Shown here piece by piece: positions 26,132 through 50,517 of a stretch of 64,000 bases of DNA. The position numbers were made by a program, and so were the translations under genes. Source of the DNA: Nocardioides pantholopis (GTDB lineage Bacteria > Actinomycetota > Actinomycetes > Propionibacteriales > Nocardioidaceae); the NCBI RefSeq assembly GCF_003710085.1, contig NZ_CP033324.1:992001-1056000 (forward strand). The letters are read 5' to 3'. Under the pieces are notes generated by a model that worked only from the letters and a program-made list of their open reading frames with translations, made no database searches and was not told the DNA's origin. Every line of letters begins with the position of its first letter. The first letter of the stretch is position 1.

Positions 26132-26499
26132 GGGGCTGATCGGTTTCGACTTGGGACGTTAGTTCCAGGGGAAGCGGGTCGAGGAGCCAGCGTCATCTCG
26201 TAAACGCTCGCTGGAAACCTATAACTGCCAACGCTAAGCGCAGTTCCTTCGCTCTCGCCGCCTGAGCGGTGATCGAAGCGTCAGACCGGGCATCCGTCTC
26301 CGTCCCGGACCCTGGCGTCATCTAGGAGACTTGCTGCTCATCCCGCGTCGCGGAGGGTGAGCGGGACTATTCCGTGACTGAGCCTGTCGGGGACGTGTTC
26401 GTGCGAGCCCTGGGGCCGAGAAAAGCGATATCACGAACTGCACCCGGAGAAGACCTGGTTCGACGCTCGAGGACGCGGGTTCGATTCCCGCCAGCTCCA
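26132..26499 (+). ncRNA. ssrA: tmRNA (transfer-messenger RNA)
   Basis: The 5' end GGGGCTGATCGGTTTCGACT and 3' end GGGTTCGATTCCCGCCAGCT-CCA form the tRNA-like half (GGGGCTG pairs with CAGCTCC, T-loop TTCGATT). The tag frame resumes at GCC 26227 and reads ANAKRSSFALAA to TGA 26263-26265, a typical actinobacterial degradation tag. It rescues stalled ribosomes together with SmpB. The genome reads ACCT after the acceptor stem, so the 3' CCA is not fully encoded and must be added by tRNA nucleotidyltransferase. Confidence 0.96.
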
Positions 26500-26557
26500 C
26501 CTCGAGGTCTTCGCAGAATTCAGCGGAGATCTTCGCAGAATTGCCGGTCCCGGTGAC

Positions 26558-30390: not shown

Positions 30391-31512
30391 ATGGTCACCA
30401 TCCACCGGCTGAGCCGCGCGGAAGCCCGCCGGATCGCCGTCCGCGCGCAGCTGCTGACCCAGGAGCGGTCCACCGACCTGGCCGAGACCGTCCGCCGGCT
30501 GTGGCTGGTGCGGCTCGAGCCCACCAGCGCGATCGCGCCCAGCGCGGACCTGGTGCTGTGGAGCCGGATCGGGGCGGCGTACGACCCCCAGGACCTGCGC
30601 GACGCCCTGGACGAGCAGCGGCTGGTCGAGCTCCGCGGCACCGTGCGCCACCCCGACGACCTCGCCGCCCACCGTGCCGAGATGGCGATCTGGCCGGGGG
30701 AGGAGCCGCTCCGGGACTGGCAGGAGCGCCGGCGCGACTGGCTGCTCACGAACGACGAGTGCCGTCGCGACGTGCTGGGCCGGCTGCGCGCCGACGGTCC
30801 GCTGCCCACCAGCGAGCTCCCCGACACGTGCGTGCAGCCGTGGCGCTCCTCGGGCTGGAACAACCAGCGCAACCTGGTCATGCTCCTCGGGCTGCTGGTC
30901 GAGAACGGCGAGGTCGCTGTCGCCGGGCGGAACGGGCGCGACAAGCTCTGGGACCTCGCCGACCGGGTCTATCCCGACGACCCGGTGCCGGACCTGGCCA
31001 CCGCCCGTCGGCTGCGCGCGGAGCGCCGGCTGGCGGCGCTCGGACTGGCGCGCGCGGCGGCCGCAGAGATGCCGGGGGAGCCGGTCGACGTGGGCCCGAT
31101 CGGCGAGCCGGCGGTCGTCGAGGGTGTCCGGGGCCGGTGGTGGGTCGAGCCGGGCCAGCTGGACCGGGTCGCGGAGCCCCTCGCGGGCCGGGCCGTGCTG
31201 CTCTCGCCGTTCGACCGGCTGCTCTATGACCGCAAGCGGGTCGCGGAGCTCTTCGAGTTCGACTACATCCTGGAGATGTACAAGCCGGCCGTGCAGCGCC
31301 GCTGGGGCTACTACGCGCTGCCGATCCTGTACGGCGACCGCCTGGTCGGGAAGCTCGACGCCCGCTTCGACCGGGACGAGGGGGAGCTGCTGGTGCACGC
31401 CGTGCACCGCGACGAGCCGTTCGACGCGGCGACGCGCGACGCCGTCGACGCCGAGATCGAGAGCCTGCGCGCCTGGCTGGTCCAGAGCGCGTCAACGGCG
31501 CCGCGCATATGA
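30391..31512 (+). CDS. AlkZ/YcaQ-like winged-helix DNA-binding protein (HTH_42)
   Basis: A 373-residue protein of the HTH_42 superfamily, which contains AlkZ and YcaQ, glycosylases that unhook DNA crosslinks and bulky lesions. Landmarks: IHRLSRAEARRIAVRAQLLT, a winged-helix block (DVLGRLRADGPLPTSELPDT), and the C-terminal barrel LLSPFDRLLYDRKRVAELFE then YYALPILYGDRLVGKLDARF. The usual catalytic Q-phi-Q/D position, before SADLVLWSRIG, reads VRLEPTS, so the family catalytic Gln appears to be Arg. It may be a non-catalytic or differently acting member. Confidence 0.85.
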   Translation: MVTIHRLSRAEARRIAVRAQLLTQERSTDLAETVRRLWLVRLEPTSAIAPSADLVLWSRIGAAYDPQDLRDALDEQRLVELRGTVRHPDDLAAHRAEMAIWPGEEPLRDWQERRRDWLLTNDECRRDVLGRLRADGPLPTSELPDTCVQPWRSSGWNNQRNLVMLLGLLVENGEVAVAGRNGRDKLWDLADRVYPDDPVPDLATARRLRAERRLAALGLARAAAAEMPGEPVDVGPIGEPAVVEGVRGRWWVEPGQLDRVAEPLAGRAVLLSPFDRLLYDRKRVAELFEFDYILEMYKPAVQRRWGYYALPILYGDRLVGKLDARFDRDEGELLVHAVHRDEPFDAATRDAVDAEIESLRAWLVQSASTAPRI

Positions 31513-31548
31513 GCGGCGCTTTCGGGGTACGGGTCCCCCGTCACGTCC

Positions 31549-31575
31549 CGGGGCCTGGTCACGCACCAGGCCCCG
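31549..31575. terminator. Hairpin terminator before ABC transporter operon
   Basis: CGGGGCCTGGT and ACCAGGCCCCG form a perfect 11-bp stem around CACGC, 36 nt after the AlkZ-like stop and 32 nt before the binding-protein ATG. It could instead attenuate the phn-like operon, as it may lie in that leader. Confidence 0.6.
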
Positions 31576-31607
31576 AGACGTACCTTCGTCCACCGGGAGG
31601 CCACCCG

Positions 31608-32543
31608 ATGCGTTCCGACCACCGGGCCCGGTCCGGCCTGGGCAGCCTGCTGGTGGCCGGCCTCGTGTCCTGCACCCTCGCGGCCTGCGGCGGCGACGAC
31701 GCGGGCGCCGAAGGCGACGGCGACCGCCCGGTGCTGACGATCAGCGCGATCCCCGACCAGGACCCCGCCGAGCTGACCGCACGCGAGGAGGCGCTGGCCG
31801 ACTACCTGGGCGGGACCCTCGACGTCGAGGTGGAGTACGTCCCGGTCACCGACTACGCCGCCTCGGTCACCCTGTTCGGCTCCGGCGACCTCGACCTGGT
31901 CTTCTACGGCGGGCTCACCGGGGTCCAGGCGCGGCTGCAGACCCCCGGCGCGACAGTGCTGGCCCAGCGCGACATCGACGCGGAGTTCCACTCCGTATTC
32001 ATCGCCAACGCGGACGCCGGGATCGAGCCGATCGCCGACGTGGACGGCCTGGACTCGCTCGCGGGCACCCGGTTCACGTTCGGCAGCGAGTCCTCGACCT
32101 CGGGACGGATGATGCCGGCGTACTTCCTGGACCAGGCCGGGGTCGACCCCGCGGGCGACTTCGCCGGCGAGCCGGGCTTCTCGGGGTCCCACGACAAGAC
32201 CATCGACCTGGTGCAGGCCGGCTCCTACGAGGCCGGCGTCCTCAACACCCAGGTCTGGGACGACCGGCTCGCGGCCGGCACCGTCGACCAGAAGAAGGTC
32301 GTCGAGATCTTCCGCACCCCCAGCTACCACGACTACCACTGGATCGCCGGCCCGAGCACCGACGACCGGTTCGGTGCCGGGTTCACCGAGGAGCTCCGTG
32401 CGGCGCTGATCGCCCTCGACGGCTCCACGGACGAGGAGCGCACCGTGCTCGAGGGGTACGGCGCGGCCGCGGTGGTGCCCACCGAGCCGGAGAACTACGA
32501 CCAGGTCGAGGAGATCGCGCGGCAACTGGGGCTCGTCTCCTGA
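31608..32543 (+). CDS. PhnD-like ABC transporter substrate-binding lipoprotein
   Basis: A 311-residue lipoprotein: signal peptide with lipobox LAAC (residues about 22-25) and GGGAGG 7 nt before the ATG. The mature protein is of the phosphonate/phosphite PhnD type: LTISAIPDQDPAELTAREEA, DLDLVFYGGLTGVQARL and the oxyanion-binding SESSTSGRMMP loop matching the S-STSG motif of PhnD. It would deliver phosphonate, phosphite or a similar oxyanion to the permease. TGATG overlap with the ATPase gene shows an operon. Confidence 0.88.
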   Translation: MRSDHRARSGLGSLLVAGLVSCTLAACGGDDAGAEGDGDRPVLTISAIPDQDPAELTAREEALADYLGGTLDVEVEYVPVTDYAASVTLFGSGDLDLVFYGGLTGVQARLQTPGATVLAQRDIDAEFHSVFIANADAGIEPIADVDGLDSLAGTRFTFGSESSTSGRMMPAYFLDQAGVDPAGDFAGEPGFSGSHDKTIDLVQAGSYEAGVLNTQVWDDRLAAGTVDQKKVVEIFRTPSYHDYHWIAGPSTDDRFGAGFTEELRAALIALDGSTDEERTVLEGYGAAAVVPTEPENYDQVEEIARQLGLVS

Positions 32544-33304
32544 TGCCCGGCACGTCCGGCGAGGTCGTGCGCCTGCGCGGCGTCGGCGTCAGCTACCCCG
32601 GCGGCACCGCGATCGACGGCGTCGACCTCGCGGTCCGCTCCGGTGAGCGGGTGGCGCTGGTGGGCCCCAGCGGAGCCGGGAAGTCGACACTGCTGGGGCT
32701 GTGCTCGGCCGGCGTCCGGGCGGACCGGGGCGACGTCGAGGTCTTCGGCCGCTCGCTGGCCGGCCTGGGTGCCGGGGACCTGGCCGGCGTACGCCGGCGG
32801 ATCGGGACCGTGCACCAGCGCCTGCACCTGGTCGACCGGCTGCGGGTCGTGCACAACGTGAACGCCGGCCACCTGGGCTCATGGGGCACCTGGCGGGCGC
32901 TCGGCTCCCTGGTCCGACCGCGCGAGCCGGAGGCCGCCCGGGCCGCCCTGGCGCGGGTCGGGATCGCGGACCGGCTGCACCAGCGCACCGGCGACCTCTC
33001 CGGCGGGGAGCAGCAGCGGGTCGCGCTGGCCCGGGTGCTGGTGCAGGACCCGGACCTGGTGCTCGCCGACGAGCCGGTCTCCAGCCTCGACCCGGGCCGG
33101 GCCGAGGAGGTGATGCGGCTGCTGTGCGAGACGGTCGCGACGCCGGCACGGACGCTGCTGGTGAGCCTGCACGACTTCGAGCTGGCGGTCCGCTGGTGCG
33201 ATCGGGTGGTCGGGCTGCGGGCCGGCCGGGTGCTCTTCGACCTGCCCGCCGCCCGCGTCGACGCCGGGCTGCGCGAGGAGCTCTACTCCCTCTCCGGCCG
33301 ATGA
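32543..33304 (+). CDS. PhnC-like ABC transporter ATPase
   Basis: A 253-residue ABC ATPase: Walker A GPSGAGKST, Q-loop HQRLHLVD, signature LSGGEQQR, Walker B LVLADEP, H-loop SLHDFE. The RALGSLVRPREPEAARAALA insert after the Q-loop is typical of PhnC. It energises import with the fused permease downstream. Both junctions overlap (TGATG, ATGA). Confidence 0.92.
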   Translation: MPGTSGEVVRLRGVGVSYPGGTAIDGVDLAVRSGERVALVGPSGAGKSTLLGLCSAGVRADRGDVEVFGRSLAGLGAGDLAGVRRRIGTVHQRLHLVDRLRVVHNVNAGHLGSWGTWRALGSLVRPREPEAARAALARVGIADRLHQRTGDLSGGEQQRVALARVLVQDPDLVLADEPVSSLDPGRAEEVMRLLCETVATPARTLLVSLHDFELAVRWCDRVVGLRAGRVLFDLPAARVDAGLREELYSLSGR

Positions 33305-34962
33305 CGGACCTGGCCGGCATCACCTCCCTGGAGGGGAGCGGGCCGCGTGCCGCACCGCCCCAGCGCGCGGCGCCCGGACGCGGCCGCCGCCCGAGGCCGG
33401 GCCGCCGGCCCACGGGGCGGACCTGGGCCGTGCTGTGGCTGGTCGTCCTGGTCTGGTCGGTGCTGGGGCTGCTGCCCGAGGGCGAGGTCGTCAACCCGGG
33501 CGGCTGGTCCTTCTTCGCCGACTTCTGGGCGCACGCCGCCCGCCCGGAGCTCTCGGCGGACTTCCTGGCAGACACCCTGGACGCCACGCTGACCACTGTC
33601 GCCTTCGGCGTGCTCGGCACCCTCGCCTCGGTGGTGATCGGCCTGGTGCTGGCGCCGGTGATGAGCCAGACCTGGTGGGCGCCGGCCACCGGCTCCCCGG
33701 TGGCCCGGGCACTGCGCGGGGCGGGGCTGCTGCTCACCCGGGTCACGGTCGCGCTGCCGCGGGGCGTGCACGAGGCGGTGTGGGGGCTGCTGCTGATCGG
33801 CGTCCTGGGCCGCGACCCGCTGGTGGGGGTGCTGGCGATCGCGATCCCGTTCGGCGCGATCACTGCCAAGGTCTACTCCGAGCTGCTCGACGAGGCCGAC
33901 CACGCGCCGTACGAGATGCTGCGCCGCTCCGGGGCGGGTCGGGTCTCCGCTGCGGCGTACGGGCTGCTGCCGGGGCTGGTGCCGGCCGCGACGTCGTACG
34001 CGTTCTACCGCTTCGAGTGCTCGCTGCGCTCGGCGGTGATCCTCGGGATGATCGGCGCCGGGGGACTCGGCCTGCAGCTGAGCCTGGCCTTCGCGGGCCT
34101 GCAGTACGGCCAGATGTGGACCTCGATCTACGCGCTGATCGTGCTCGGTGCCGTGATCGACCGCTGGGGCGCCTGGCTGCGGCGCGGGGCGAACCCGCGC
34201 CGGTGGGGCATCTCGGGGGTGCTGGGCCTGGTCCTGGCAGTGGCAGCGGTCGGGCATCTGCGGCCGGACCCGGCGGCGTGGTTCTCCGCGGACACCGTGG
34301 ACCGGCTCGGCCGGCTGGTCGACGACCTGGTGCCGCCGGCGCTGCCGGCGGGCGGGCTTCCCGAGCTGGTCTCCCGGTCGGTGGAGACGCTGCAGATGTC
34401 GGTGCTCGCGATCTCGATCGCGGCCACGCTCGGAGTCGTGGTCGCGCTGGTCGCGGCCCGGGGCGCGACCTCCCCGGCCCGGCGGGTCGCCGCCTGGGCG
34501 GCCCGCCAGCTGCTCCTGGTCACCCGCGCGGTGCCGCCGCCGGTGTGGGCGCTGCTGGTGCTGTTCGTGGTGTTCCCGGGTCCGCTGCCGGGCGCGATCG
34601 CGCTCGGCATCTACACGTTCGGGATCCTCGGACGGCTCTTCGCCGAGGCCGTCGAGGAGCTGGACCCGCGGCCGCGGCAGGCACTGACCCAGCTCGGCGC
34701 CCCCGGCACCGCGTCGTTCGCGTACGCCTCGCTGCCGGCCGCGCTGGGCCAGCTCGTCTCGTTCACCCTCTACCGCTGGGAGGTGACGGCCCGCGAGACC
34801 GTGGTGGTCGGCGTTGTCGGCGCGGGGGGCCTGGGCCGGCTGCTGGAGGAGCAGCGGGCCGGCTTCGACTACCCGGCCATGGCCGGCACCGTGCTCGCCC
34901 TGATCGCGGTGTGCCTGCTCGTGGACCTGCTCAGCCTCGCGGTCCGGAGCTCGCTGCGCTGA
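33301..34962 (+). CDS. PhnE-type permease, two domains fused
   Basis: A 553-residue permease made of two tandem BPD-type transmembrane domains in one chain (about 90-300 and 355-550). Each carries an EAA-like coupling loop: EADHAPYEMLRRSGAGRVSA in the first and ELDPRPRQALTQLGAPGTAS in the second. The usual PhnE is a single domain of about 270 residues acting as dimer, or PhnE1/PhnE2 as separate chains; here they are covalently joined. A basic, Pro-rich cytoplasmic N-terminus precedes. The gene is convergent with selB. Confidence 0.9.
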   Translation: MTDLAGITSLEGSGPRAAPPQRAAPGRGRRPRPGRRPTGRTWAVLWLVVLVWSVLGLLPEGEVVNPGGWSFFADFWAHAARPELSADFLADTLDATLTTVAFGVLGTLASVVIGLVLAPVMSQTWWAPATGSPVARALRGAGLLLTRVTVALPRGVHEAVWGLLLIGVLGRDPLVGVLAIAIPFGAITAKVYSELLDEADHAPYEMLRRSGAGRVSAAAYGLLPGLVPAATSYAFYRFECSLRSAVILGMIGAGGLGLQLSLAFAGLQYGQMWTSIYALIVLGAVIDRWGAWLRRGANPRRWGISGVLGLVLAVAAVGHLRPDPAAWFSADTVDRLGRLVDDLVPPALPAGGLPELVSRSVETLQMSVLAISIAATLGVVVALVAARGATSPARRVAAWAARQLLLVTRAVPPPVWALLVLFVVFPGPLPGAIALGIYTFGILGRLFAEAVEELDPRPRQALTQLGAPGTASFAYASLPAALGQLVSFTLYRWEVTARETVVVGVVGAGGLGRLLEEQRAGFDYPAMAGTVLALIAVCLLVDLLSLAVRSSLR

Positions 34963-35009: not shown

Positions 35010-35075
35010 GGGCTCGCGGCTCGACCACCGGGCTCCTGGCTCGACCACCGGGCTCCTGGCTCGACCACCGGGCTC
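34996..35075. repeat. Four 20-bp tandem repeats between phnE-like gene and selB
   Basis: GCGGCTCGACCACCGGGCTC occurs twice, then CTGGCTCGACCACCGGGCTC twice, head to tail with no spacer. The last unit overlaps the selB stop codon (35074-35076). It apparently arose by expanding the tail of the 40-bp repeat. It fills the convergent gap and may affect 3'-end formation of both operons. Confidence 0.85.
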
Positions 35076-36894
35076 AGCGGACCTCGCGCCGGTCGTCGGG
35101 GAGCCGGCGGGTCAGCCCGGCCCGGTCGAGCAGGTCGAGCAGCGGCAGCACCACCCGCCGGGTGGTGCCGAGCCGCTGCCGGGCCTCGCTGGTCGTGAAC
35201 GGCTGCGGCAGCTCGGCCAGCCAGGCTGCGGCGGTCCGGTCCGCCCCGGGGAGCAGCACGATGCCCGGGGCGACTCGCAGCAGCCGACCGGCCTTCGCGG
35301 CCGCGCCCACCCGGCGTACGTCGAGGCCGAGCTCCGCGAGCCGGTCCGCGGTGGGGGCCGCGAACGGCGCCCCGGCGAGGTCGGCCTCCAGCGCCGCCAC
35401 CGCGCGCTCCACCTCCGCCGGCAGGGCGGCCGTCGCCGCCGGAGCCCGGACCCGGCCACGGGCCACCTGCAGCGGCGCTCGTACGACGGCGGCCACCACC
35501 TCGGCGGCGGGAAGCCCGAGCCGATCGGCCAGCGCGGTCAGCGGCAGCCCGGGGTCGAGCGGGTCGGCGGCGTCGTGCTCGGAGACCAGTCGGGCGACCT
35601 CGGTGCCGAGCCGCTCGGCGCGCTCGGCGTCGAGCAGCCACCGGCCGGCGCGGACGGCGCCCGGTGGCGGCTCCGCGGTCGGGACCCCGATCCGGCGCAG
35701 CTGCGCGGAGTCCGCGAGGCCGCGGCGGGCGAGCTCGGAGGCGAGGTCGGGGTCCCCGGAGACCGCGCCGAGCGCCCGGGCCCGGGCGGCGCCGGCACCG
35801 CGGCGGCGCAGCGGCGGCGGGTCGGGGTCGAGCACCCGGGCTCCCCACACGGCGCGGCTGCCGGGGTCGCGGAGCAGGGCCCGGTCGCCGACCCGCAGCG
35901 GCAGCGGCCGCTCGAGGGTGAGTCGGACCAGGTCGGGGCCGAGGGGCCGGGTGCGCGCGGTGAGCGAGGTGGCGCCGACGTGCAGCTGGAGGTGGGCCGG
36001 CAGCGACGCTGGACCACTGACGGCACCGCCCGAGTTGCCAGAGCTGTCCGAGTTATCCGGGTGTCCCGGGCCCTCGCGGCCGGGAACTGCCCGGACGTCG
36101 ACGATCGCGGTGTGGTGCCAGGCCTCGGGGGTGACCAGCACGCCGCCGCGGTCCAGGCCGTCGACCCCGTCGCCGGTCACGTTGAGGGCGACCCGGGCCA
36201 CTCCGGTGGCGGCGTCCGCGGGACGCCCGAGCACCTGCACGCCGCGCACCCGCAGCAGCCCGCCCGTGGAGGCGAGCTCGTCGCCGCGGGCGACCCGGCC
36301 GGCCGGCAGGGTGCCGGTGACCACGGTCCCGGCGCCCTTCACGCTGAACCGCCGGTCCACCCAGAGCCGGACGTCGGCCCGGGGGTCGGGCTCCGGCAGG
36401 GCTGCGACCATCGCGCCGAGGTGGTCGCGCAGCGCGTCCAGACCCTCGCCGGTGCGGGCGGAGACCGCCACCACCGGCGCCCCGCGCAGCGAGGTGCGCG
36501 CCACCTCCTCGGTGGCCCGGCGCAGCGCCGGCCCCGGGTCGGCGAGGTCGCAGCGGGTCACGGCCACGACGCCGTGACGCACCCCGAGCGCGTCCAGCGC
36601 CGCCAGGTGCTCGGCGGCCTGCGGCATCCAGGGATCGTCGGCGGCGACGACCAGCAGCGCCGCCGGCACCGGCCCGACGCCGGCCAGCATCGTGGTCACG
36701 AACCGCTCGTGGCCCGGCACGTCGACGAATGCGACCTCGCCGTGGCCGGCCAGTGTCGTCCACACGTAGCCGAGCTCGATGGACAGCCCCCGCCGCCGCT
36801 CCTCCTCGAGCCGGTCGGAGTGCATGCCGGTCAGGGCGTCGACGAGCGTGGACTTGCCGTGGTCGACGTGGCCGGCGGTGGCGATGACGTGCAT
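35074..36894 (-). CDS. selB: Selenocysteine-specific elongation factor SelB
   Basis: A 606-residue GTPase that brings Sec-tRNA to UGA codons marked by a SECIS hairpin. The EF-Tu-like G domain is at the N-terminus: IATAGHVDHGKSTLVDALTG (G1), FVDVPGHERFVTTML (G3), VAVTRCDLAD (G4) and VSARTGEGLD (G5). Domains II and III follow, and the C-terminal winged helices that bind SECIS RNA occupy about residues 390-606 (ending VLPLLDLLDRAGLTRRLPDD). The ATG is 2 nt after the selA stop, so the two are coupled. Confidence 0.95.
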   Translation of the reverse strand: MHVIATAGHVDHGKSTLVDALTGMHSDRLEEERRRGLSIELGYVWTTLAGHGEVAFVDVPGHERFVTTMLAGVGPVPAALLVVAADDPWMPQAAEHLAALDALGVRHGVVAVTRCDLADPGPALRRATEEVARTSLRGAPVVAVSARTGEGLDALRDHLGAMVAALPEPDPRADVRLWVDRRFSVKGAGTVVTGTLPAGRVARGDELASTGGLLRVRGVQVLGRPADAATGVARVALNVTGDGVDGLDRGGVLVTPEAWHHTAIVDVRAVPGREGPGHPDNSDSSGNSGGAVSGPASLPAHLQLHVGATSLTARTRPLGPDLVRLTLERPLPLRVGDRALLRDPGSRAVWGARVLDPDPPPLRRRGAGAARARALGAVSGDPDLASELARRGLADSAQLRRIGVPTAEPPPGAVRAGRWLLDAERAERLGTEVARLVSEHDAADPLDPGLPLTALADRLGLPAAEVVAAVVRAPLQVARGRVRAPAATAALPAEVERAVAALEADLAGAPFAAPTADRLAELGLDVRRVGAAAKAGRLLRVAPGIVLLPGADRTAAAWLAELPQPFTTSEARQRLGTTRRVVLPLLDLLDRAGLTRRLPDDRREVR

Positions 36895-36896
36895 GC

Positions 36897-38228
36897 TCAG
36901 TCCCGCGCCCGGGCCGCCGCCCGGCGTACGGCGTGCGCCAGAGCGGCGTCGTCCTCGGGGTCCACCGCGATCAGGTCCAGCAGCAGCCGGCCCCGCTCGA
37001 CCCGGCCGACGACCGGCAGCTCGGCGTCCCGGCGCAGCGGCTCGGCGAGACCGGCCGGCAGGGCGACCGCCGCGCTGGGCAGCGGGACCTCCGGTGCCCC
37101 GCCGCCGCCGACCGCCGCCACGCTCTCGGCGACCTCGGCCCCGACCTCCGGGCCGAGGTCGGCGCAGATCCGCGCGGCCCGGGCGGCCAGGGCGGCCGGG
37201 GTGGTCGCCAGCGCGGCGGCGACCGGGGTCCGGGGGCCGGTCAGCGTCGCCTCGAGCGCCGCGAGCGTGAGCTTGTCGACCCGCAGCGCCCGCGCGAACG
37301 GGTGCCGGCGCAGCCCGTCGACCAGCTCGGCGGCGCCGAGCATCAGCCCGCACTGCGGTCCGCCGAGGAGCTTGTCGCCGGAGGCCGTGACCAGGTCCGC
37401 GCCGGCGCGCAGGGCGCTCGCGGCGTCGGGCTCGCCGGGCAGCCGGGGGTGCGGCGCGAGCAGTCCCGAGCCGATGTCGGCGACGACCGGGACCCCGAGC
37501 CCGGCGAGCTCGGCCACGCCGACCGAGGAGGTGAAGCCGGAGACCACGAAGTTGGACGGGTGCACCTTGAGCACGAACGCCGTCCGGTCGCCGACGGCGG
37601 CCCGGTAGTCCTCGAGCCGGACCCGGTTCGTCGTGCCGACCTCGCGCAGGGCCACGCCGAGCGACTCCAGCAGCTCGGGGATCCGGAAGCCGTCGCCGAT
37701 CTCGACCAGCTCGCCGCGGGCGATCACGACCTCGCGGCCGCCGTCCGGCGACGTCAGCGCGCAGGCGGCCAGCGCGAGTGCGGCGGCGCCGTTGTTGACC
37801 ACGTGCACCCCGCCGGCGTCCGGGACGGCCGCCGCCAGGGCCGCCAGCGCCGAGCGGCCACGGCGGGCCCGACGGCCGGTGGCCAGCTCCAGCTCCACGT
37901 CGGTGGCCCCGGCCGCGACCGCCAGGGCGTCGGCGGCCGCCGCGGAGAGGGGCGCGCGGCCGAGGTTGGTGTGCACCACGACGCCGGTGGCGTTGAGGAC
38001 CCGGCGCAGGCCGGTGGCGTGGGCCGGCACCGCAGCGCGGGCCGCGGCGACCACGTCCGCGGGCTCGAGCTCCCCGGCCCGGCACCGGTCCAGGGCCGCG
38101 GTGACGGCCAGCTTCACCAGCCGGTCGCCCACCCGTTCGGCGGCCTCCCGCAGTGCGGGGTCGGCCAGCACGGCGTCGGTGCGGGGCGTGGCGCGGCGCC
38201 GGTCCGCCTCGGTGTCCTGGTCCGGCAC
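36897..38228 (-). CDS. selA: L-seryl-tRNA(Sec) selenium transferase SelA
   Basis: A 443-residue PLP enzyme converting Ser-tRNA(Sec) to Sec-tRNA(Sec) with selenophosphate. The GTG start has GGAGG 6 nt upstream. The N-terminal tRNA-binding region (TPRTDAVLADPALREAAERV) is followed by LNATGVVVHTNLGRAPLSAA, GTTNRVRLEDY, VADIGSGLL and the catalytic-lysine motif TASGDKLLGGPQCG. It lies between tRNA-Sec and selB on one strand, so selC-selA-selB is probably one transcription unit. Confidence 0.95.
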   Translation of the reverse strand: MPDQDTEADRRRATPRTDAVLADPALREAAERVGDRLVKLAVTAALDRCRAGELEPADVVAAARAAVPAHATGLRRVLNATGVVVHTNLGRAPLSAAAADALAVAAGATDVELELATGRRARRGRSALAALAAAVPDAGGVHVVNNGAAALALAACALTSPDGGREVVIARGELVEIGDGFRIPELLESLGVALREVGTTNRVRLEDYRAAVGDRTAFVLKVHPSNFVVSGFTSSVGVAELAGLGVPVVADIGSGLLAPHPRLPGEPDAASALRAGADLVTASGDKLLGGPQCGLMLGAAELVDGLRRHPFARALRVDKLTLAALEATLTGPRTPVAAALATTPAALAARAARICADLGPEVGAEVAESVAAVGGGGAPEVPLPSAAVALPAGLAEPLRRDAELPVVGRVERGRLLLDLIAVDPEDDAALAHAVRRAAARARD

Positions 38229-38256
38229 GCAGGTCCTCCCGACCGTGGACTTCGAG

Positions 38257-38289
38257 GCGGTTGATTCCAAGCGGTTGATTCCAAGCGGT
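38257..38289. repeat. Tandem 14-bp repeat in selA leader
   Basis: GCGGTTGATTCCAA occurs twice head to tail (38257-38270, 38271-38284) plus a partial GCGGT. It lies between the 3' end of tRNA-Sec and the selA ribosome site, i.e. in the region where the tRNA is cut from the selA message. Confidence 0.75.
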
Positions 38290-39533: not shown

Positions 39534-42500
39534 ATGGCCAAGGCGTTCTTGGACTGGCCGGTGCTGCGCCAGTTCCGCGGGGACGACGTCCTCGCCCGTG
39601 GCGTCGCTGCCCGCTCGCAGCAGACCGAGGAGCTCACCGCCCGCACCACGACGGCCGACCACGTCGCCCGCAGCGTGTGCCCCTACTGCGCGGTGGGCTG
39701 CGGTCAGAAGGTCTTCGTCAAGGACGGCGAGGTGACCCAGATCGAGGGTGACCCCGACAGTCCCGTCTCCCGCGGCCGGCTGTGCCCCAAGGGCTCGGCC
39801 AGCAAGAACCTCGTCACCAGCTCGCTGCGCCAGACCAAGGTCCGCTACCGCCGCCCCTACGGCACCGAGTGGGAGGACCTCGAGCTCTCCACGGCGATGG
39901 AGATGATCGCGGACCGGGTCGTGAAGACCCGCCGCGACTTCTGGCAGGAGCTCGACGAGAAGGGCCGCCGGGTCCGGCGCACGATGGGCATCGCCAGCCT
40001 CGGCGGCGCCACGCTGGACAACGAGGAGAACTACCTCATCAAGAAGCTCTTCACGGCGATGGGCGCTATCCAGATCGAGAACCAGGCCCGGATATGACAC
40101 TCCGCCACCGTCCCCGGTCTGGGGACCAGCTTCGGGCGTGGCGGCGCCACCGGGTTCCTGCAGGACCTCGCCAACGCTGACTGCATCATCATCCAGGGGT
40201 CGAACATGGCCGAGGCCCACCCGGTGGGCTTCCAGTGGGTGGTGGAGGCCAAGGCGCGCGGCGCCAAGGTGATCCACGTCGACCCCCGGTTCACGCGCAC
40301 CAGCGCGCTGGCCGACACGTTCGTGCCGCTGCGGGTCGGGTCCGACATCGCGTTCCTCGGCGGCATCGTCAACTACGTGCTCAGCAACGAGCTGGACTTC
40401 CGTGAGTACGTCGTGGCGTACACCAACGCCGCCACGATCCTCAGCGAGGACTTCGAGGACACCGAGGACCTCGACGGGCTGTTCTCCGGGTTCGACCCCG
40501 AGACCCGCACCTACGACACCCAGAGCTGGCAGTACGCCACCCAGGAGGGGGACGCGGCCGACGACAACGAGCCGATGCAGCGCGAGACCGCCAGCGCCAT
40601 GCAGCACGAGACGCACGGCGTCCAGGTGAAGGGCGAGCCGCCGCGCGACGAGACGCTCCAGGACCCGCGCTGCGTCTACCAGGTCCTCAAGCGGCACTAC
40701 TCCCGCTACACCCCGGAGATGGTCGCGCGCACCTGCGGGGTCAGCGAGGAGGCGTTCCTCGAGGTGTGCCGGGCCTGGACCGAGAACTCCGGGCGGGACC
40801 GCACCACCGCGCTGGTCTACAGCGTGGGCTGGACCCAGCACAGCGTCGGCGTGCAGTACATCCGCACCGGCGCGATCCTCCAGCTGCTGCTCGGCAACAC
40901 CGGCCGGCCCGGCGGCGGGATCATGGCGCTGCGCGGGCACGCCAGCATCCAGGGGTCGACCGACATCCCGACGCTGTTCAACCTGCTGCCCGGCTACCTG
41001 CCGATGCCGAACGCCGCGGAGCACACCTCCCTGGAGGAGTGGCTCGACGCGGTCCGCCAGCCCGGGGCGAAGGGGTTCTGGTCGAACGCCGACGCCTACG
41101 GGGTCAGCCTGCTCAAGGCCTACTGGGGGGAGAAGGCGACGGCGGAGAACGACTACTGCTACGACTACCTGCCCCGGATCACCGGCGACCACGGCACCTA
41201 CCGCACGGTGCTGGACATGATCGACGGCAAGGTGAAGGGCTACTTCCTGCTCGGCCAGAACCCGGCCGTCGGGTCCGCCCACGGGCGCGCCCAGCGGCTC
41301 GGCATGGCCAACCTGGACTGGCTGGTGGTGCGCGACCTGTTCGAGATCGAGAGCGCCAGCTTCTGGAAGGACTCCCCGGAGGTGGAGACCGGCGAGATCG
41401 TGCCGGAGGAGTGCGCCACCGAGGTGTTCTTGATGCCCGCGGCCTCGCACGTCGAGAAGGAGGGCACCTTCACCCAGACCCAGCGGATGCTCCAGTGGCG
41501 GGAGAAGGCCGTGGAGGCGCCCGGGGACTGCCGCTCGGAGCTGTGGTTCTTCTACCACCTGGGCCGGATGCTGCGCGAGCGGCTGGCCGACTCCACCGAC
41601 GAGCGGGACCGGCCGCTGCTGGACCTCGCGTGGGACTACTCCACGCACGGGCTGCACGCCGAGCCCAGCGCGGAGGACGTGCTGATGGAGATCAACGGCT
41701 ACGAGATCGCCACCCGGCGTCCGCTGTCGTCGTTCACCCAGATGCGCAACGACGGCAGCACCGTGGGCGGCTGCTGGATCTACACGGGCGTCTTCGCCGA
41801 CGGCGTCAACCAGGCGGCCCGGCGCAAGCCCGGCAAGGAGCAGTCCTGGGTGGCGCCCGAGTGGGGCTGGGCGTGGCCGGCGAACCGCCGCACGCTGTAC
41901 AACCGCGCCTCGGCCGACCCCGAGGGCCGGCCGTGGAGCGAGCGCAAGGCCTACGTGTGGTGGGACGAGGCGGCCCAGGAGTGGACCGGGCACGACGTGC
42001 CGGACTTCGAGAAGACCAAGCCGCCGTCGTACCGCCCCGGTCCCGAGGACGACGGCGTGGCCGGCATCGCCGGCAACGACCCGTTCATCATGCAGGGCGA
42101 CGGGAAGGGCGCGCTCTACGTGCCCCAAGGGCTGCTCGACGGCCCGATGCCCACGCACTACGAGCCGGTGGAGTCGCCGTTCCCGAACCCGATGTACGGC
42201 CAGCAGGCCAACCCCATCCGCAAGGAGTACACCCGGGCCGAGAACCGGATGAACCCCAGCCCGCCGGAGGACCACAGCGAGGTCTTCCCGTTCGTCTTCA
42301 CCACCAGTCGGCTCACCGAGCACCACACGGCCGGCGGGATGAGCCGCTACGTCGCGCGGCTGGCCGAGCTCCAGCCGGAGATGTTCGTCGAGGTCTCCCC
42401 GGAGCTGGCCGGCGAGCGCGGGCTGGAGAACGGCGGCTGGGCCACGATCGTCACCGCGCGCGCCGCGATCGAGGCCCGGGTGATGGTCACCGACCGGCTC

Positions 42501-42857
42501 TCGCCGCTGCGGGTCGAGAACCGGACCGTGCACCAGGTCTGGCTGCCCTACCACTGGGGACAGGGCGGGATCGTCACCGGCGACTCCGCCAACGACCTCC
42601 TCGGCATCTCGCTGGACCCCAACGTGCTGATCCAGGAGTCCAAGGTCGGCACCTGCGACGTCCGGCCGGGGCGGCGCCCGACCGGTGTGGCGCTGACCGC
42701 CCTGGTCGCGGGGTACCAGCACCGCGCCGGGGTGGACCACGACCTGGAGCGGCCGATCGTGACCACGGGGGCGGGTGCCTTCACCGCCGACGCCGGCGAC
42801 GAGACGCCCAACCCCGAGGGCGAGCCCGACCACGACCAGGGAAGCGGAGCATCCTGA
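39534..42857 (+). CDS. fdhA: Formate dehydrogenase catalytic subunit, selenoprotein (in-frame TGA = Sec188)
   Basis: Read through TGA 40095-40097 as selenocysteine, this is one 1107-residue molybdo/tungsto-bis-PGD formate dehydrogenase of the FdnG/FdoG type. The N-terminal [4Fe-4S] ligands are C49, C52, C56 and C84. ENQARI-Sec-HSATVPGLGTSFGRGG is the active-site motif; Sec188 would ligate the metal and the next His is the catalytic partner. Frames before and after the TGA are the same and homology is continuous. CGGAGGAG precedes the ATG. No twin-arginine signal is present (starts MAKAFLDWPVLRQFRG), unlike E. coli FdnG, so it should stay cytoplasmic. The stop overlaps fdhB. Confidence 0.95.
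40095..40143 (+). promoter_or_regulatory. Sec codon (TGA) and bacterial SECIS element
   Basis: Exactly 18 nt after TGA comes the apical loop GGTCT, closed by GTCCCC/GGGGAC (40110-40126). The outer arm CGCCAC (40103-40108) pairs with GTGGCG (40138-40143). The E. coli fdhF SECIS has the same GGUCU loop at the same distance, from memory. SelB (35074-36894) should bind this hairpin and recruit Sec-tRNA. Confidence 0.92.
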
Positions 42858-43822
42858 TGATCGGTGGCAAGAACAGCCTCTTCGGCCCGGTCGACGCGAC
42901 CGCCAACTCCGGGTACGGCGACGACCATCCGCCGCGGAAGGGGTTCTTCACCGACACCAGCATCTGCATCGGCTGCAAGGCCTGCGAGGTGGCGTGCAAG
43001 GAGTGGAACGACGTCCCTGCCGACCACTTCGACATGACCGCCAGCTCCTACGACAACAGCCACTCGCTGAACGCCAACCAGTGGCGCCACGTGGCTTTCA
43101 TCGAGCAGCCCAAGCGGCTCGGCGCCCAGGACCCCGGGCTCCGGGCGCCGCAGGTCACGGACCTGGGGATGCCGACCGCCCGCCCGTCCGACACCCTGAC
43201 CGTCGAGGAGGGCGAGCAGACGGATGACACGAAGCCGGACTTCCGGTGGCTGATGTCCTCCGACGTGTGCAAGCACTGCACCCACGCCGCGTGCCTGGAC
43301 GTGTGCCCGACCGGGTCGCTGTTCCGCTCGGAGTTCGGCACGGTCGTGGTCCAGGACGACATCTGCAACGGCTGCGGCTACTGCGTGGCCGCCTGCCCGT
43401 ACGGCGTGATCGAGCGCCGCCGCGCGCCGGACGGGGCGAAGAACGTCGGGATCGCCCAGAAGTGCACGCTGTGCTACGACCGGCTCGGCGCCGGGCAGAC
43501 CCCGGCCTGCGCCCAGGCGTGCCCCACCGAGTCCATCCAGTTCGGCGACGTGGAGGAGCTGCGGGAGCGGGCCAGCACCCGGGTCGCGCAGCTGCACGAG
43601 GCCGGCATCATGGACGCTCGGCTCTACGGCAACGACCCCGAGGACGGCGTCGGTGGCGCCGGCGCGTTCTTCCTGCTCCTCGACGAGCCCGAGGTCTACG
43701 GGCTGCCGCCGGACCCGGTGGTGACCACCAAGGACCTGCCGCAGATGTTCAACCGCGCCTCGACCGCCGCGTTCACGCTGCTGGCCGGTGCCGCGCTGGC
43801 GTTTGTGGGGAGGCGGCGATGA
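42857..43822 (+). CDS. fdhB: Formate dehydrogenase iron-sulfur (beta) subunit
   Basis: A 321-residue electron-transfer subunit with four [4Fe-4S] motifs: CIGCKACEVACKEW, CKHCTHAACLDVCP, CNGCGYCVAACP and CTLCYDR...PACAQACP. A C-terminal hydrophobic helix (TAAFTLLAGAALAFVG) could anchor it to the membrane. It passes electrons from FdhA to the NrfD-like subunit. It overlaps both neighbours (TGATG, ATGA). Confidence 0.94.
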   Translation: MIGGKNSLFGPVDATANSGYGDDHPPRKGFFTDTSICIGCKACEVACKEWNDVPADHFDMTASSYDNSHSLNANQWRHVAFIEQPKRLGAQDPGLRAPQVTDLGMPTARPSDTLTVEEGEQTDDTKPDFRWLMSSDVCKHCTHAACLDVCPTGSLFRSEFGTVVVQDDICNGCGYCVAACPYGVIERRRAPDGAKNVGIAQKCTLCYDRLGAGQTPACAQACPTESIQFGDVEELRERASTRVAQLHEAGIMDARLYGNDPEDGVGGAGAFFLLLDEPEVYGLPPDPVVTTKDLPQMFNRASTAAFTLLAGAALAFVGRRR

Positions 43823-44940: not shown

Positions 44941-46242
44941 ATGAGCAACACCGGGACGAACAGTGGGGCCGCCAGCGCGGAGGCCGGGGGCGAGACCGGG
45001 ACGAACCGCTGGCTGCTCGTGGCCGCGGCGCTGCTCCTGCAGTTCTCGATCGGCGCCGTGTACGCGTGGAGCGTCTTCTCCAAGGCCCTCCAGGACGCCT
45101 CGGCGTTCGAGCTGAGCTCGGTCGAGGCGGCCATCCCGTTCGAGGTCACGATCGGGATGATCTTCATCGGCACCTACATCGGCGGCCGGATCCAGGACCG
45201 GCGCGGGCCGCGGGTGGTGGCGATGGCCGGCGGCGTGATCTACGGCCTGGGCGTGCTGCTGGCCGGCTTCGCGGAGAGCAAGGACGACTTCTGGCTGGTC
45301 GTGCTCGGGTACGGCGTGATCAGCGGCTTCGGGCTCGGCGTGGCCTACATCGTGCCGATCGCGATGCTGCAGAAGTGGTTCCCCGACAAGCGCGGCCTGA
45401 TCACCGGGCTGGCGGTCGGTGGCTTCGGCTTCGGTGCGGTGCTCACCTCGCCGGTGGCGAACTGGCTGATCGACCGTGACCCGGACATCCCGACCAAGGC
45501 GTTCATCCCGCTCGGCATCGCCTACCTGGTGATGTCGCTGATCGGCGCCTCGCTGTTCAAGAACCCGCCCGAGGGCTACACCGTGGCCGGCCACGAGGCG
45601 GTCGGCGGCTCCGGCGCGGACGCCGCCACCCGCGACTACACCCAGGGCGAGGCCCTGCGCACCCCGCAGTGGTACCTGCTCACCGCGATCCTCACCCTCA
45701 ACGTCGCGGCCGGCATCTCGCTGATCTCCCAGGCCGCGGCCAGCGCCACCGACATCGCCGGGTACTCCGCTGCCGGGGCGGCCACGCTGGTCGGCGCCCT
45801 GGCGATCTTCAACGGCGCCGGGCGGATCGTGTGGGCTGCGGCCTCGGACAAGATCGGGCGGATGCGGGCCTTCGCCGCGATGCTCGCGCTGTCCGGTCTG
45901 TGCCTGATCGCGATCCCGCACGCGGAGAGCGCCGTGCTGTTCGCCCTGCTCGCCGCGGTCATCTACCTCTGCTACGGCGGCGCCTTCGGCACCATGCCCG
46001 CCACCGCCGGCGACTACTTCGGGGTGCGCCACGCGGGCGCGATCTACGGGCTGATGCTGATCGGCTGGAGCATCGGCGGCGTCGCGGGGCCGCTGCTCGC
46101 CTCGGCCCTGATCGGCGAGGACGAGGCCTACACCACGGCGTACACGGTCATCGGCGTGGTCGCCGTGGCCGCCGTCGCGCTGACGTTCCTCACCAAGGTC
46201 CCGAAGGGCCGCGAGGCGGAGGCCGTCGACGCTCGGGGGTAG
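44941..46242 (+). CDS. MFS transporter, oxalate/formate antiporter-like (OFA)
   Basis: A 433-residue, 12-helix MFS carrier of the OFA family: LLLQFSIGAVYAWSVFSKAL in helix 1, IGGRIQDRRGPR between helices 2 and 3, and FGFGAVLTSPVANWLIDRDP in the N-terminal half. E and D residues flank the helices as in OxlT-like carriers. Only 9 nt separate it from the NrfD-like gene, so it belongs to the fdh operon and likely moves formate or a related carboxylate. Confidence 0.9.
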   Translation: MSNTGTNSGAASAEAGGETGTNRWLLVAAALLLQFSIGAVYAWSVFSKALQDASAFELSSVEAAIPFEVTIGMIFIGTYIGGRIQDRRGPRVVAMAGGVIYGLGVLLAGFAESKDDFWLVVLGYGVISGFGLGVAYIVPIAMLQKWFPDKRGLITGLAVGGFGFGAVLTSPVANWLIDRDPDIPTKAFIPLGIAYLVMSLIGASLFKNPPEGYTVAGHEAVGGSGADAATRDYTQGEALRTPQWYLLTAILTLNVAAGISLISQAAASATDIAGYSAAGAATLVGALAIFNGAGRIVWAAASDKIGRMRAFAAMLALSGLCLIAIPHAESAVLFALLAAVIYLCYGGAFGTMPATAGDYFGVRHAGAIYGLMLIGWSIGGVAGPLLASALIGEDEAYTTAYTVIGVVAVAAVALTFLTKVPKGREAEAVDARG

Positions 46243-48852: not shown

Positions 48853-49032
48853 AGGTGGGTTCCTTCAGGGTAGGCGCGGACCGCGCGCCGTACCCACCAC
48901 CAAGAACGCGCCGAACCCTGTGCGCCGAGGATGCTAGCCGCCCTCCGGGGTGCCGTGGGCATCCGCGACCGGCCGGGTGACCGGCCTCACCTGGGTCGCC
49001 GGGGCCGGTCCCGGCCGGGCACACTGACGCCC

Positions 49033-50517
49033 ATGCCTCTCGGGTCGCCCTACTCCGTCCCCGTCCGCCGCGCCGCCGCGCACCGACCGCAAGGAGGGGG
49101 CGCCGGCCGGGTGCTGACTGTGGTCCTGGCCCTGATCCTGGGCGTGGCCGGGACGGTCGCGATGGTCGCTCTGCCCGCCCACGCGGCGCCGGCCGCGACG
49201 ACCCTCGTGCTGAGCGGCACCGGCGGCACGGCCGGTGCCACCACGACGCTCGCGCTGGAGCTGCGCACCACCGACGGTCGGCCGGTGGCCGGCGCGACGG
49301 TCCTGGTCGAGCGGGCGTCGGGCGGCGGGGGATGGGCGCCGGTGGGCACGGTCGGCACCGACGCCGCGGGCCGGGCCACCCTGCCGGCCACGATCGACCG
49401 GGTCCCCGCCCGGAACGCCTTCCGGGCGAGCTGGGCCGGCGACACGACGTACGCCGGGGCGGCCGCCGCCACCCAGGTCCGCCTCACCCGGCTGGGCAGC
49501 AGCCTGGCCGTCACCGGCCCGGGCAGCGTGACCGACGGCGCGAGCGTTGACCTCCAGGTGACCTGGCGGACCGTCGACGGCCAGCCGGTCGCGGGCCCGG
49601 TGCGGCTCCAGCGGCGCAACGCGGGCGGGAAGTGGCGCACCGTCACCACCCTGCGCACCGGGCCCGACGGCACGGCCCGGCTCCGGGTCCGCCCGCGGGT
49701 GGACACCGCCTGGCGTGCCCGGGCCGCGGCGCTGGCCTGGGTCGAGGCGGCGCGCAGCGGCATCCGCAGCCTGGACAACCGCCCGCCGGGCGACCGGGTC
49801 CGGCTGCCGAAGCGGGCGCCGCGGCCCCGGGTCCGGCTGCCGCGGCAGCGGCGCGCGGTCGACGAGGGCGCCAACCTGGCAGTCACCCGGATCCCCGCGG
49901 GGGTCTGGCGGCAGATGACCGGGCGCAGCTGGCGCCGGGGCTGCCCGGTCGGCCGCGCCGGCCTGCGGCTGGTCCGCGTCAACTACTGGGGCTACGACGG
50001 CTACCGCTACCGCGGGGAGCTGGTCGCCAATGCCCGCGCGGCCCGGGCCATGGGCGGCGCGCTGGCCGAGATGTACGCCGCGGGGCACGCCGTCCGCTCC
50101 ATGTACCGGGTCGACCGGTTCGGCTGGTCCAAGCGGCTCAGGGGCGCCGACGACTACCGCTCGATGGCGGCCGGCAACACCTCGGCGTTCAACTGCCGCC
50201 ACGTCGTCGGCCGGCCGGGGGTCCGCTCGCCGCACTCCTACGGCACCGCCCTGGACGTGAACACCTGGGAGAACCCCTACCGCTCCGCGCGCGGCATCGT
50301 GCCGAACCGGTTCTGGCAGGCCCGCTCGCACCCGAACGTCGCCTGGCGCTCGCGCAACCACGCGGTGGTGCGGATCATGGCGCGCCACGGGCTGCGCTGG
50401 ACCTACGGGCTCGGCGACACCCAGCACTTCGACTACGTCGGCCCCGCGGGCACGGCCGGTGCGGGCCGGTCCGTCGCCCACCTGCACCCGCAGTGCACCG
50501 GGTTCATCTGCGAGTAG
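49033..50517 (+). CDS. Secreted M15 (VanY-like) peptidase with Ig-like domains
   Basis: A 494-residue exported protein. After an N-terminal signal segment (VLTVVLALILGVAGTVAMVA) come two Ig-like repeats (about 55-160 and 160-250) and a basic linker (RVRLPKRAPRPRVRLPRQRR). The C-terminal M15 domain has zinc ligands H401 and D408 (SPHSYGTALDVN) and H465 (GDTQHFDYV). It likely trims peptidoglycan stem peptides outside the membrane. The TAG stop is part of the -10 of the next gene. Confidence 0.87.
   Translation: MPLGSPYSVPVRRAAAHRPQGGGAGRVLTVVLALILGVAGTVAMVALPAHAAPAATTLVLSGTGGTAGATTTLALELRTTDGRPVAGATVLVERASGGGGWAPVGTVGTDAAGRATLPATIDRVPARNAFRASWAGDTTYAGAAAATQVRLTRLGSSLAVTGPGSVTDGASVDLQVTWRTVDGQPVAGPVRLQRRNAGGKWRTVTTLRTGPDGTARLRVRPRVDTAWRARAAALAWVEAARSGIRSLDNRPPGDRVRLPKRAPRPRVRLPRQRRAVDEGANLAVTRIPAGVWRQMTGRSWRRGCPVGRAGLRLVRVNYWGYDGYRYRGELVANARAARAMGGALAEMYAAGHAVRSMYRVDRFGWSKRLRGADDYRSMAAGNTSAFNCRHVVGRPGVRSPHSYGTALDVNTWENPYRSARGIVPNRFWQARSHPNVAWRSRNHAVVRIMARHGLRWTYGLGDTQHFDYVGPAGTAGAGRSVAHLHPQCTGFICE

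What the first reader, a model, noticed from the sequence alone, without database searches (positions are those of the whole stretch)
40095..40143. In-frame TGA and E. coli-like SECIS in an actinobacterial formate dehydrogenase
The frame before (39534) and after (40206) the TGA is the same, the residue before His in the active-site motif is Sec, and 18 nt after TGA sits a hairpin with a GGTCT loop. A standard gene caller would report two truncated proteins. The window also contains selA, selB, selC and selD.
Basis: partly seen in the sequence, partly recalled or inferred. Interest (0 to 1): 0.75.

Follow-up and report, generated by a model that had tools for sequence, protein, structure and literature searches.

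The report
Selenocysteine-coding formate dehydrogenase gene
An actinobacterium carries a formate dehydrogenase gene interrupted by a stop codon that is likely read as selenocysteine with the help of a conserved RNA hairpin just after it; this is a well-known arrangement shared by many related bacteria, so it is real but ordinary.

Summary
TGA 40095-40097 lies in frame within 39534-42857 (1107 codons), at the Sec position of an actinobacterial formate dehydrogenase alpha subunit (NF041513, 1959 bits over residues 5-1064). selB, selA, selC (UCA anticodon) and selD lie directly upstream. In 81 genes (the best 80 of 210 relatives found, plus the window) the codon is UGA in 66, UAG in 15 and never sense. 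Of 129 loci read in all, three have Cys, and there the loop is altered and three of six hairpin pairs fail. The hairpin (stem starting 12 nt, GGTCT loop 18 nt after TGA) is supported by covariation: 98.0% of cells pair, with 42 cells changed on both sides against 7.0 in shuffles. E. coli fdhF and fdnG have the same loop spacing. Against it, the window's own RNA is predicted to prefer a competing fold with longer flanks. The Sec-site pattern occurs in 87 of 341 genomes of the family, and actinobacterial Sec-FDHs are in print. It is a new member of a known kind. Side result: UAG-Sec relatives do not form one clade (p-AU 0.0002).

The parts
35074..36894 (-). selB, Sec-specific elongation factor (606 aa), GTPase domain plus C-terminal winged helix
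   Evidence: TIGR00475 266 bits (cut-off 242), PF09107 SelB-wing_3 and PF25461; ATG at 36894 read, whereas searches used the frame from 36900
36897..38270 (-). selA, L-seryl-tRNA(Sec) selenium transferase
   Evidence: TIGR00474 391 bits
38301..38395 (-). selC, tRNA-Sec, anticodon UCA
   Evidence: ARAGORN, RF01852 75.2 bits
38459..39472 (+). selD, selenophosphate synthetase, Cys form (GGCACK)
   Evidence: TIGR00476 380 bits; N-terminus read
39534..42857 (+). fdhA, formate dehydrogenase alpha subunit, 1107 residues if the TGA is read as Sec
   Evidence: NF041513 1959 bits over residues 5-1064 as one stretch; one in-frame TGA inside
40095..40097 (+). in-frame UGA, codon 188, at the Sec/Cys position of formate dehydrogenases
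   Evidence: aligns with the corresponding position of a solved Sec-FDH (the tool shows Sec as C)
40110..40126 (+). SECIS-like hairpin, 6 bp stem, GGUCU loop
   Evidence: covariation in 102 sequences; same loop spacing as E. coli fdhF and fdnG
42857..43822 (+). fdhB, iron-sulfur beta subunit
   Evidence: TIGR01582 173 bits, below its cut-off of 334.7; four C..C motifs; a crude hydropathy scan finds no membrane segment
43819..44931 (+). fdhC, NrfD-type gamma subunit
   Evidence: PF03916 54 bits over cut-off; a crude hydropathy scan finds three hydrophobic segments
44941..46242 (+). MFS transporter of the lactate and oxalate/formate antiporter kind
   Evidence: NF049980 426 bits, over its cut-off; TIGR00890 234 bits, below its cut-off

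Best explanation
The gene at 39534-42857 encodes a formate dehydrogenase alpha subunit whose in-frame UGA (40095-40097) is likely translated as selenocysteine. Shown by sequence: one continuous family match across the UGA, sel genes next door, a covarying hairpin after the codon, and Sec (UGA/UAG) or Cys at this position in relatives. Inferred from the established bacterial pathway: SelA and SelD charge the UCA tRNA-Sec with selenium; SelB-GTP carries it and binds the GGUCU hairpin as the ribosome reaches the UGA; Sec is inserted in place of termination. The Sec would then coordinate Mo (or W) of the bis-MGD cofactor, with FdhD (encoded at G000:1998023-1998763) needed for maturation. Electrons would pass through the Fe-S clusters of FdhA and FdhB to the NrfD-type FdhC and probably menaquinone. 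FdhA has no RR pair in its first 60 residues, so a cytoplasmic active site is more likely than the exported arrangement of E. coli FdnG (the latter recalled).
For: NF041513 match 5-1064 as one stretch. selA, selB, selC and selD adjacent. 66 UGA and 15 UAG of 81. Phylum search: of 67 one-piece matches over the cut-off, 65 hold an in-frame TGA; the two without were read and have TGC. Hairpin covariation: 98.0% of 612 cells paired, 42 cells changed on both sides versus 7.0 +/- 2.2 shuffled; slid controls reach at most 62.6% paired and 12 such cells. Two of the covarying pairs join third codon positions (Val with Gly; Pro with Leu). In the three Cys relatives (L089, L090, L133) three of six pairs fail and the loop is GGGCT or GGCCT. 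The loop spacing of 18 nt is identical in E. coli fdhF and fdnG. The alignment-based model finds one significant site in the 4.04 Mb genome. Literature: Actinomycetospora chiangmaiensis Sec-FDHs with selenite-dependent formate removal (PMC7176365, passages).
Against: Alone, the window's hairpin does not fold unusually well. With 48-103 nt after the TGA its pairs have probability 0.20-0.30, and at most 0.01 when the RNA starts at 40107, because a competing fold wins. At 51 nt only 64 of 102 relatives show at least five of the six pairs in the minimum-energy fold, against 93-95 of 102 at 36-45 nt. The model's score is not a clean SECIS test: it gives the Cys genes 20.9-37.4 bits, E. coli fdnG 39.0 and fdhF 16.9, because conserved protein sequence adds to it. 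No Se, protein or enzyme data exist for this genome. Insertion efficiency, Mo versus W, electron acceptor and membrane side are inferred.
Confidence: 0.96

Rival explanations
1. The TGA is a true stop: the gene is a decayed pseudogene, or two separate proteins (187 and 883 residues).
For: The protein collection holds an 883-residue piece for this genome.
Against: A stop (UGA 66, UAG 15) at the same codon in all 81 genes compared; GC3 of 0.96 and 0.99 on the two sides of the TGA, as in intact genes of the window; sel genes adjacent.
Confidence: 0.02
2. The TGA is a sequencing or assembly error for a Cys or Trp codon.
For: Cys relatives exist in the phylum (3 of 129 loci).
Against: The SECIS loop and stem are intact here, while in the Cys genes three of six pairs fail; the 36 best-listed relatives (L007-L042), from other assemblies, all have TGA.
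Confidence: 0.01
3. UGA is read through as another amino acid by an ordinary tRNA rather than as Sec.
For: None found; the tools cannot exclude low-level read-through.
Against: A dedicated UCA tRNA-Sec and selA, selB, selD are adjacent. Where relatives use UAG, the four Geodermatophilaceae genomes whose tRNA-Sec I read have a CUA anticodon; in two further UAG bins this was not so (one UCA, one with no tRNA-Sec found).
Confidence: 0.01

Closest known systems
Actinomycetospora chiangmaiensis FDH1 (and FDH2) (PMC7176365)
   Same: Actinobacterial membrane-bound Sec-FdhA (1078 and 1089 residues); FDH1 is listed with beta and gamma subunits, a permease, SelA and SelB; bSECISearch was used there to find the SECIS; formate removal depends on selenite (passages read)
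   Different: Different organism with three Sec-FDH systems; SelD is listed outside the FDH1 group there, while selD is directly before fdhA here
Corynebacterium aurimucosum fdnG and sel region (PMC2830990)
   Same: Sec-UGA in the FDH alpha gene, in a cluster with sel genes (passages read)
   Different: Gene numbers there imply another order (fdnG, fdxH, then selD, selA, selB); an additional thiol FDH gene is present there
NCBIfam NF041513 formate_DH_Act
   Same: 1959 bits against a cut-off of 1400
   Different: No difference noted
E. coli fdnG and fdhF SECIS
   Same: UGA-CAC and a loop starting 18 nt after the UGA: GGTCT in fdhF, AGTCT in fdnG; in the actinobacterial set the first loop base is G in 80 and A in 22 of 102
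   Different: Stem sequence differs; the bulged U and longer lower stem of the E. coli element (recalled) were not demonstrated here
UAG-Sec FDHs of Geodermatophilaceae (PMC5330540)
   Same: Same enzyme kind, with the hairpin kept
   Different: UAG codon with CUA tRNA-Sec (passages); the window uses UGA with UCA

Membership tests
Actinobacterial formate dehydrogenase alpha (NF041513) | score over the curated cut-off across the full length | tested here: met
   1959 bits vs 1400, residues 5-1064 of 1107
Actinobacterial formate dehydrogenase alpha (NF041513) | Fe4S4 domain, molybdopterin domain and dinucleotide-binding domain | tested here: met
   PF04879, PF00384, PF01568 all over cut-off
Bacterial selenoprotein gene | in-frame UGA at a redox position where relatives have Sec or Cys | tested here: met
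   111 TGA, 15 TAG, 3 Cys in 129 of 130 loci read
Bacterial selenoprotein gene | SECIS hairpin at the right distance, conserved as structure | tested here: met
   covariation; spacing as in E. coli
Bacterial selenoprotein gene | hairpin is the favoured fold of this very RNA | tested here: inconclusive
   forms at 40-42 nt, probability 0.20-0.30 with longer flanks and at most 0.01 from 40107 on
Bacterial selenoprotein gene | selA, selB, selC, selD in the genome | tested here: met
   all in the window
Bacterial selenoprotein gene | Se in the purified protein | not testable with these tools
   needs 75Se labelling or mass spectrometry
FdnG-type exported respiratory FDH (E. coli FDH-N; defining features recalled) | twin-arginine signal on the alpha subunit | tested here: not met
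   no RR in the first 60 residues
FdnG-type exported respiratory FDH (E. coli FDH-N; defining features recalled) | cytochrome b gamma subunit | tested here: not met
   the gamma position holds an NrfD-family protein

The most novel reading that the evidence does not exclude
In this enzyme family the Sec codon follows the host, not the gene. When an fdhA of this kind moves into a Geodermatophilaceae host whose tRNA-Sec has a CUA anticodon, its UGA is converted to UAG while the SECIS hairpin stays, so Sec codon identity can switch repeatedly after horizontal transfer. L066 (Modestobacter, host with CUA tRNA-Sec) groups with a UGA gene of Pseudonocardia, and one clade of the 14 UAG genes is rejected.
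Probability: 0.5. Interest if true: 0.4.

Novelty: new member of a known kind. Interest (0 to 1): 0.17.

Why it matters
It joins a gene that the protein collection holds only as an 883-residue piece among the rows listed, and shows that the Sec-FDH site is common in this family: 87 of 341 genomes have an exact match to the UGA-site pattern. Formate oxidation in these mostly aerobic actinobacteria (lifestyle recalled) would then depend on selenium supply. The recoding itself is textbook; the broader value lies in the alignment of 102 natural SECIS variants with clear covariation, and in UAG relatives that show the codon can change while the hairpin stays.

Tried and rejected
Possible second selenoprotein: the alignment-based model run over the whole genome gives the fdhA site (E 1.1e-13) and then eight sites with E from 1.2 to 8.9. 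Two of the eight begin with TGA (L173, L178), but in both the frame with coding-like composition is another one: in L173 a 2220-base frame on the opposite strand (third-position GC 0.97), in L178 an 810-base frame on the same strand (0.94). The model was built from fdhA genes only, so it would miss unlike SECIS elements.

FdhD with '1 TGA' inside: the TGA is its ordinary terminal stop; the protein has CGVCG.

Relatives with '2 TGA', 'TGA plus TAG' or 'TGA plus TAA': I read nine such loci of those listed. In eight (L118-L124, L129) the second stop is the terminal stop 843-868 residues downstream, not a second Sec. L127 is the exception, with a TAG 59 codons after the site.

Chance: synonymous draws give stem plus loop in 1.2% of cases for the single sequence, so one sequence alone would not prove the hairpin; the comparison does.

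UAG in a Nocardioidaceae bin (L043): the bin's tRNA-Sec is UCA and the TAG starts 36 nt from a contig end, so it was not taken as evidence for a new code.

Rfam scan of seven of the 15 UAG loci found no tRNA-Sec in those stretches; in four of six UAG genomes searched, a CUA tRNA-Sec lies elsewhere in the genome.

In print: a search for Nocardioides + selenocysteine + formate dehydrogenase gave 0 papers in the held open library; the library lacks most subscription journals. A search for a paper on the bulged U of the E. coli SECIS gave one unrelated title, not read.

Full report
Observation. The TGA at 40095-40097 lies in frame between ATG 39534 and the terminal TGA 42855-42857, giving 1107 codons with the internal TGA at codon 188. 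The hairpin GTCCCC-GGTCT-GGGGAC occupies 40110-40126; its stem begins 12 nt and its loop 18 nt after the TGA.

Identity. Read with TGA as Sec, the protein matches NF041513 (actinobacterial formate dehydrogenase) at 1959 bits from residue 5 to 1064 in one stretch, and has the Fe4S4, molybdopterin and dinucleotide-binding domains. The nearest solved chains are selenocysteine-containing FDHs (Desulfovibrio by recall; the table names only the molecule) and E. coli FDH-N; residue 188 aligns with the corresponding position of the best one. Downstream follow an Fe-S beta subunit, an NrfD-type gamma subunit and an MFS transporter of the lactate or oxalate/formate kind. FdhA has no twin-arginine pair in its first 60 residues; a crude hydropathy scan calls three segments in FdhC and none in FdhB. 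FdhD is encoded elsewhere in the genome. A protein search of the genome with FdhA gives one match, the window's own gene.

Is the TGA a codon? The best 80 of 210 relatives found in species genomes, plus the window, give 66 UGA, 15 UAG and no sense codon. In 396 genomes of the phylum, 68 pass the family cut-off. Of 67 one-piece matches over it, 65 hold an in-frame TGA and 2 none; three more genomes pass only with neighbouring pieces. The two without stops carry TGC. Over everything fetched up to I read the site in 129 of 130 loci: 111 TGA, 15 TAG, 2 TGC, 1 TGT; L134 lacked the motif. In the family, 87 of 341 genomes have an exact match to the UGA-site pattern and 1 of 341 to the UAG pattern; the pattern demands much of the hairpin, so variants are missed.

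Is the hairpin real? On 102 distinct sequences (90 TGA, 12 TAG) the six-pair helix is 98.0% paired, with 42 cells changed on both sides (shuffles 7.0 +/- 2.2; 0 of 500 as high) and a covariation score of 0.329 (shuffles 0.147); slid controls fall to at most 62.6% paired. The weaker measures exceed shuffles less clearly (pairs with a change on both sides: 18 of 500 as high; further pair types: 15 of 500). The shuffles do not keep relatedness. The strongest pair joins the third base of the Val codon with the third base of the Gly codon (C-G 62, U-A 15, G-C 11, G-U 7, U-G 4, other 3 of 102), both free at the protein level. Another (Pro third base with Leu third base) flips from C-G to G-C in 6 of 102. 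A consensus fold predicted without naming a structure finds the same helix plus one G-U/A-U pair. The Gly/Ser codon in the loop ends in T in 81 of 81 genes, against 8.65% (GGT) and 2.1% (AGT) usage elsewhere in those genes. In the three Cys relatives three of six pairs fail and the loop is changed. E. coli fdhF and fdnG have their loops at the same 18-nt distance.

Results against. For the window alone, shuffles fold about as well (z -0.71, -0.31 and -1.26 for 49, 40 and 29 nt). With longer flanks a competing fold leaves the hairpin pairs at probability 0.20-0.30, and at most 0.01 when the RNA starts at 40107. Of 102 relatives, 93-95 show at least five of six pairs in the minimum-energy fold at 36-45 nt, but 64 at 51 nt. 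The model built on the alignment also scores the Cys genes (20.9-37.4 bits), so its score is not a SECIS test by itself. Ribosome occlusion and SelB binding could favour the hairpin in the cell, but that is inference, and the fold that starts at 40107 does not support it.

Databases. The protein collection holds this gene as an 883-residue piece (P0001, on the 4,041,717-base contig), and the 120 listed relatives (of 7996 scored) are 843-913 residues covering 76-81% of the query.

UAG side result. 13 of the 15 UAG rows carry names of Geodermatophilaceae strains; the other two are bins named Modestobacter (L077) and Marmoricola (L043). Of six UAG genomes searched, four have tRNA-Sec with anticodon CUA, one (L043's bin) UCA, and in one (L077's bin) none was found beyond a 48-bit match that reads as a serine-type tRNA. 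PMC5330540 (passages) reports CUA for three genomes of the family. In the 80 loci, ARAGORN calls a tRNA-Sec in 46, all UCA and none in a UAG locus; it labels the CUA form tRNA-Pyl. The UAG genes fall in four places of the FdhA tree. The UAG group was set by codon before the tree was built; after seeing it I dropped L043 as doubtful, and one clade of the remaining 14 is rejected (p-AU 0.0002; quick tree). L066 is the clean case: its host has CUA tRNA-Sec and its gene groups with a UGA gene of Pseudonocardia. L043 has TAG starting 36 nt from a contig end, is the only close fdhA in its bin, and lies on a contig whose katG is closest to Nocardioides among the ten other genomes searched, six of which had a match: misbinning, an assembly effect or a broken gene are all possible.

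Known work. PMC7176365 (passages) describes three Sec-FDH systems in Actinomycetospora chiangmaiensis, SECIS prediction there, and formate accumulation without selenite. PMC2830990 (passages) describes the clustered fdnG and sel genes of Corynebacterium aurimucosum. PMC1794560 (passages) found FdhA in 67 of 75 Sec-using bacteria and counts Actinobacteria among three phyla rich in selenoprotein families; PMC5029168 (passages) lists 1276 FdhA selenoproteins in 822 organisms. The present locus adds one member.

Verdict.

Noticed in passing
L043:1-180 (MAG Marmoricola RYN_217; G396:C80 = G491:C80): The only close fdhA of this Nocardioidaceae bin has TAG at the Sec codon, starting 36 nt from the contig end, while the bin's tRNA-Sec (L138) has anticodon UCA and sits near another contig's end. 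Misbinning, assembly effect, broken gene or a codon switch in progress.
   Followed up: partly
L066:9544-9594 and L077:5478-5528: UAG-Sec fdhA genes labelled Modestobacter that group with UGA genes of Pseudonocardia rather than with the main UAG clade; one UAG clade is rejected.
   Followed up: partly
L127 (G140:C16), 59 codons after the Sec site: A further in-frame TAG lies 59 codons after the Sec UGA in one relative; sequencing error, broken gene or something else.
   Followed up: no
L139-L142: ARAGORN labels the CUA tRNA-Sec of Geodermatophilaceae as tRNA-Pyl, a labelling trap for automatic annotation.
   Followed up: no
window 50116-50208 (+): ARAGORN calls a 93-nt tRNA-Gly (ACC) inside an ORF (48931-50517) with a D-Ala-D-Ala carboxypeptidase domain; likely a false call.
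   Followed up: no
window 26132-26502 (+): tmRNA gene, tag ANAKRSSFALAA.
   Followed up: no
window 31509-32543 and 32701-34962 (+): Phosphonate-type ABC transporter binding protein and a frame with a permease domain next to the sel genes.
   Followed up: no
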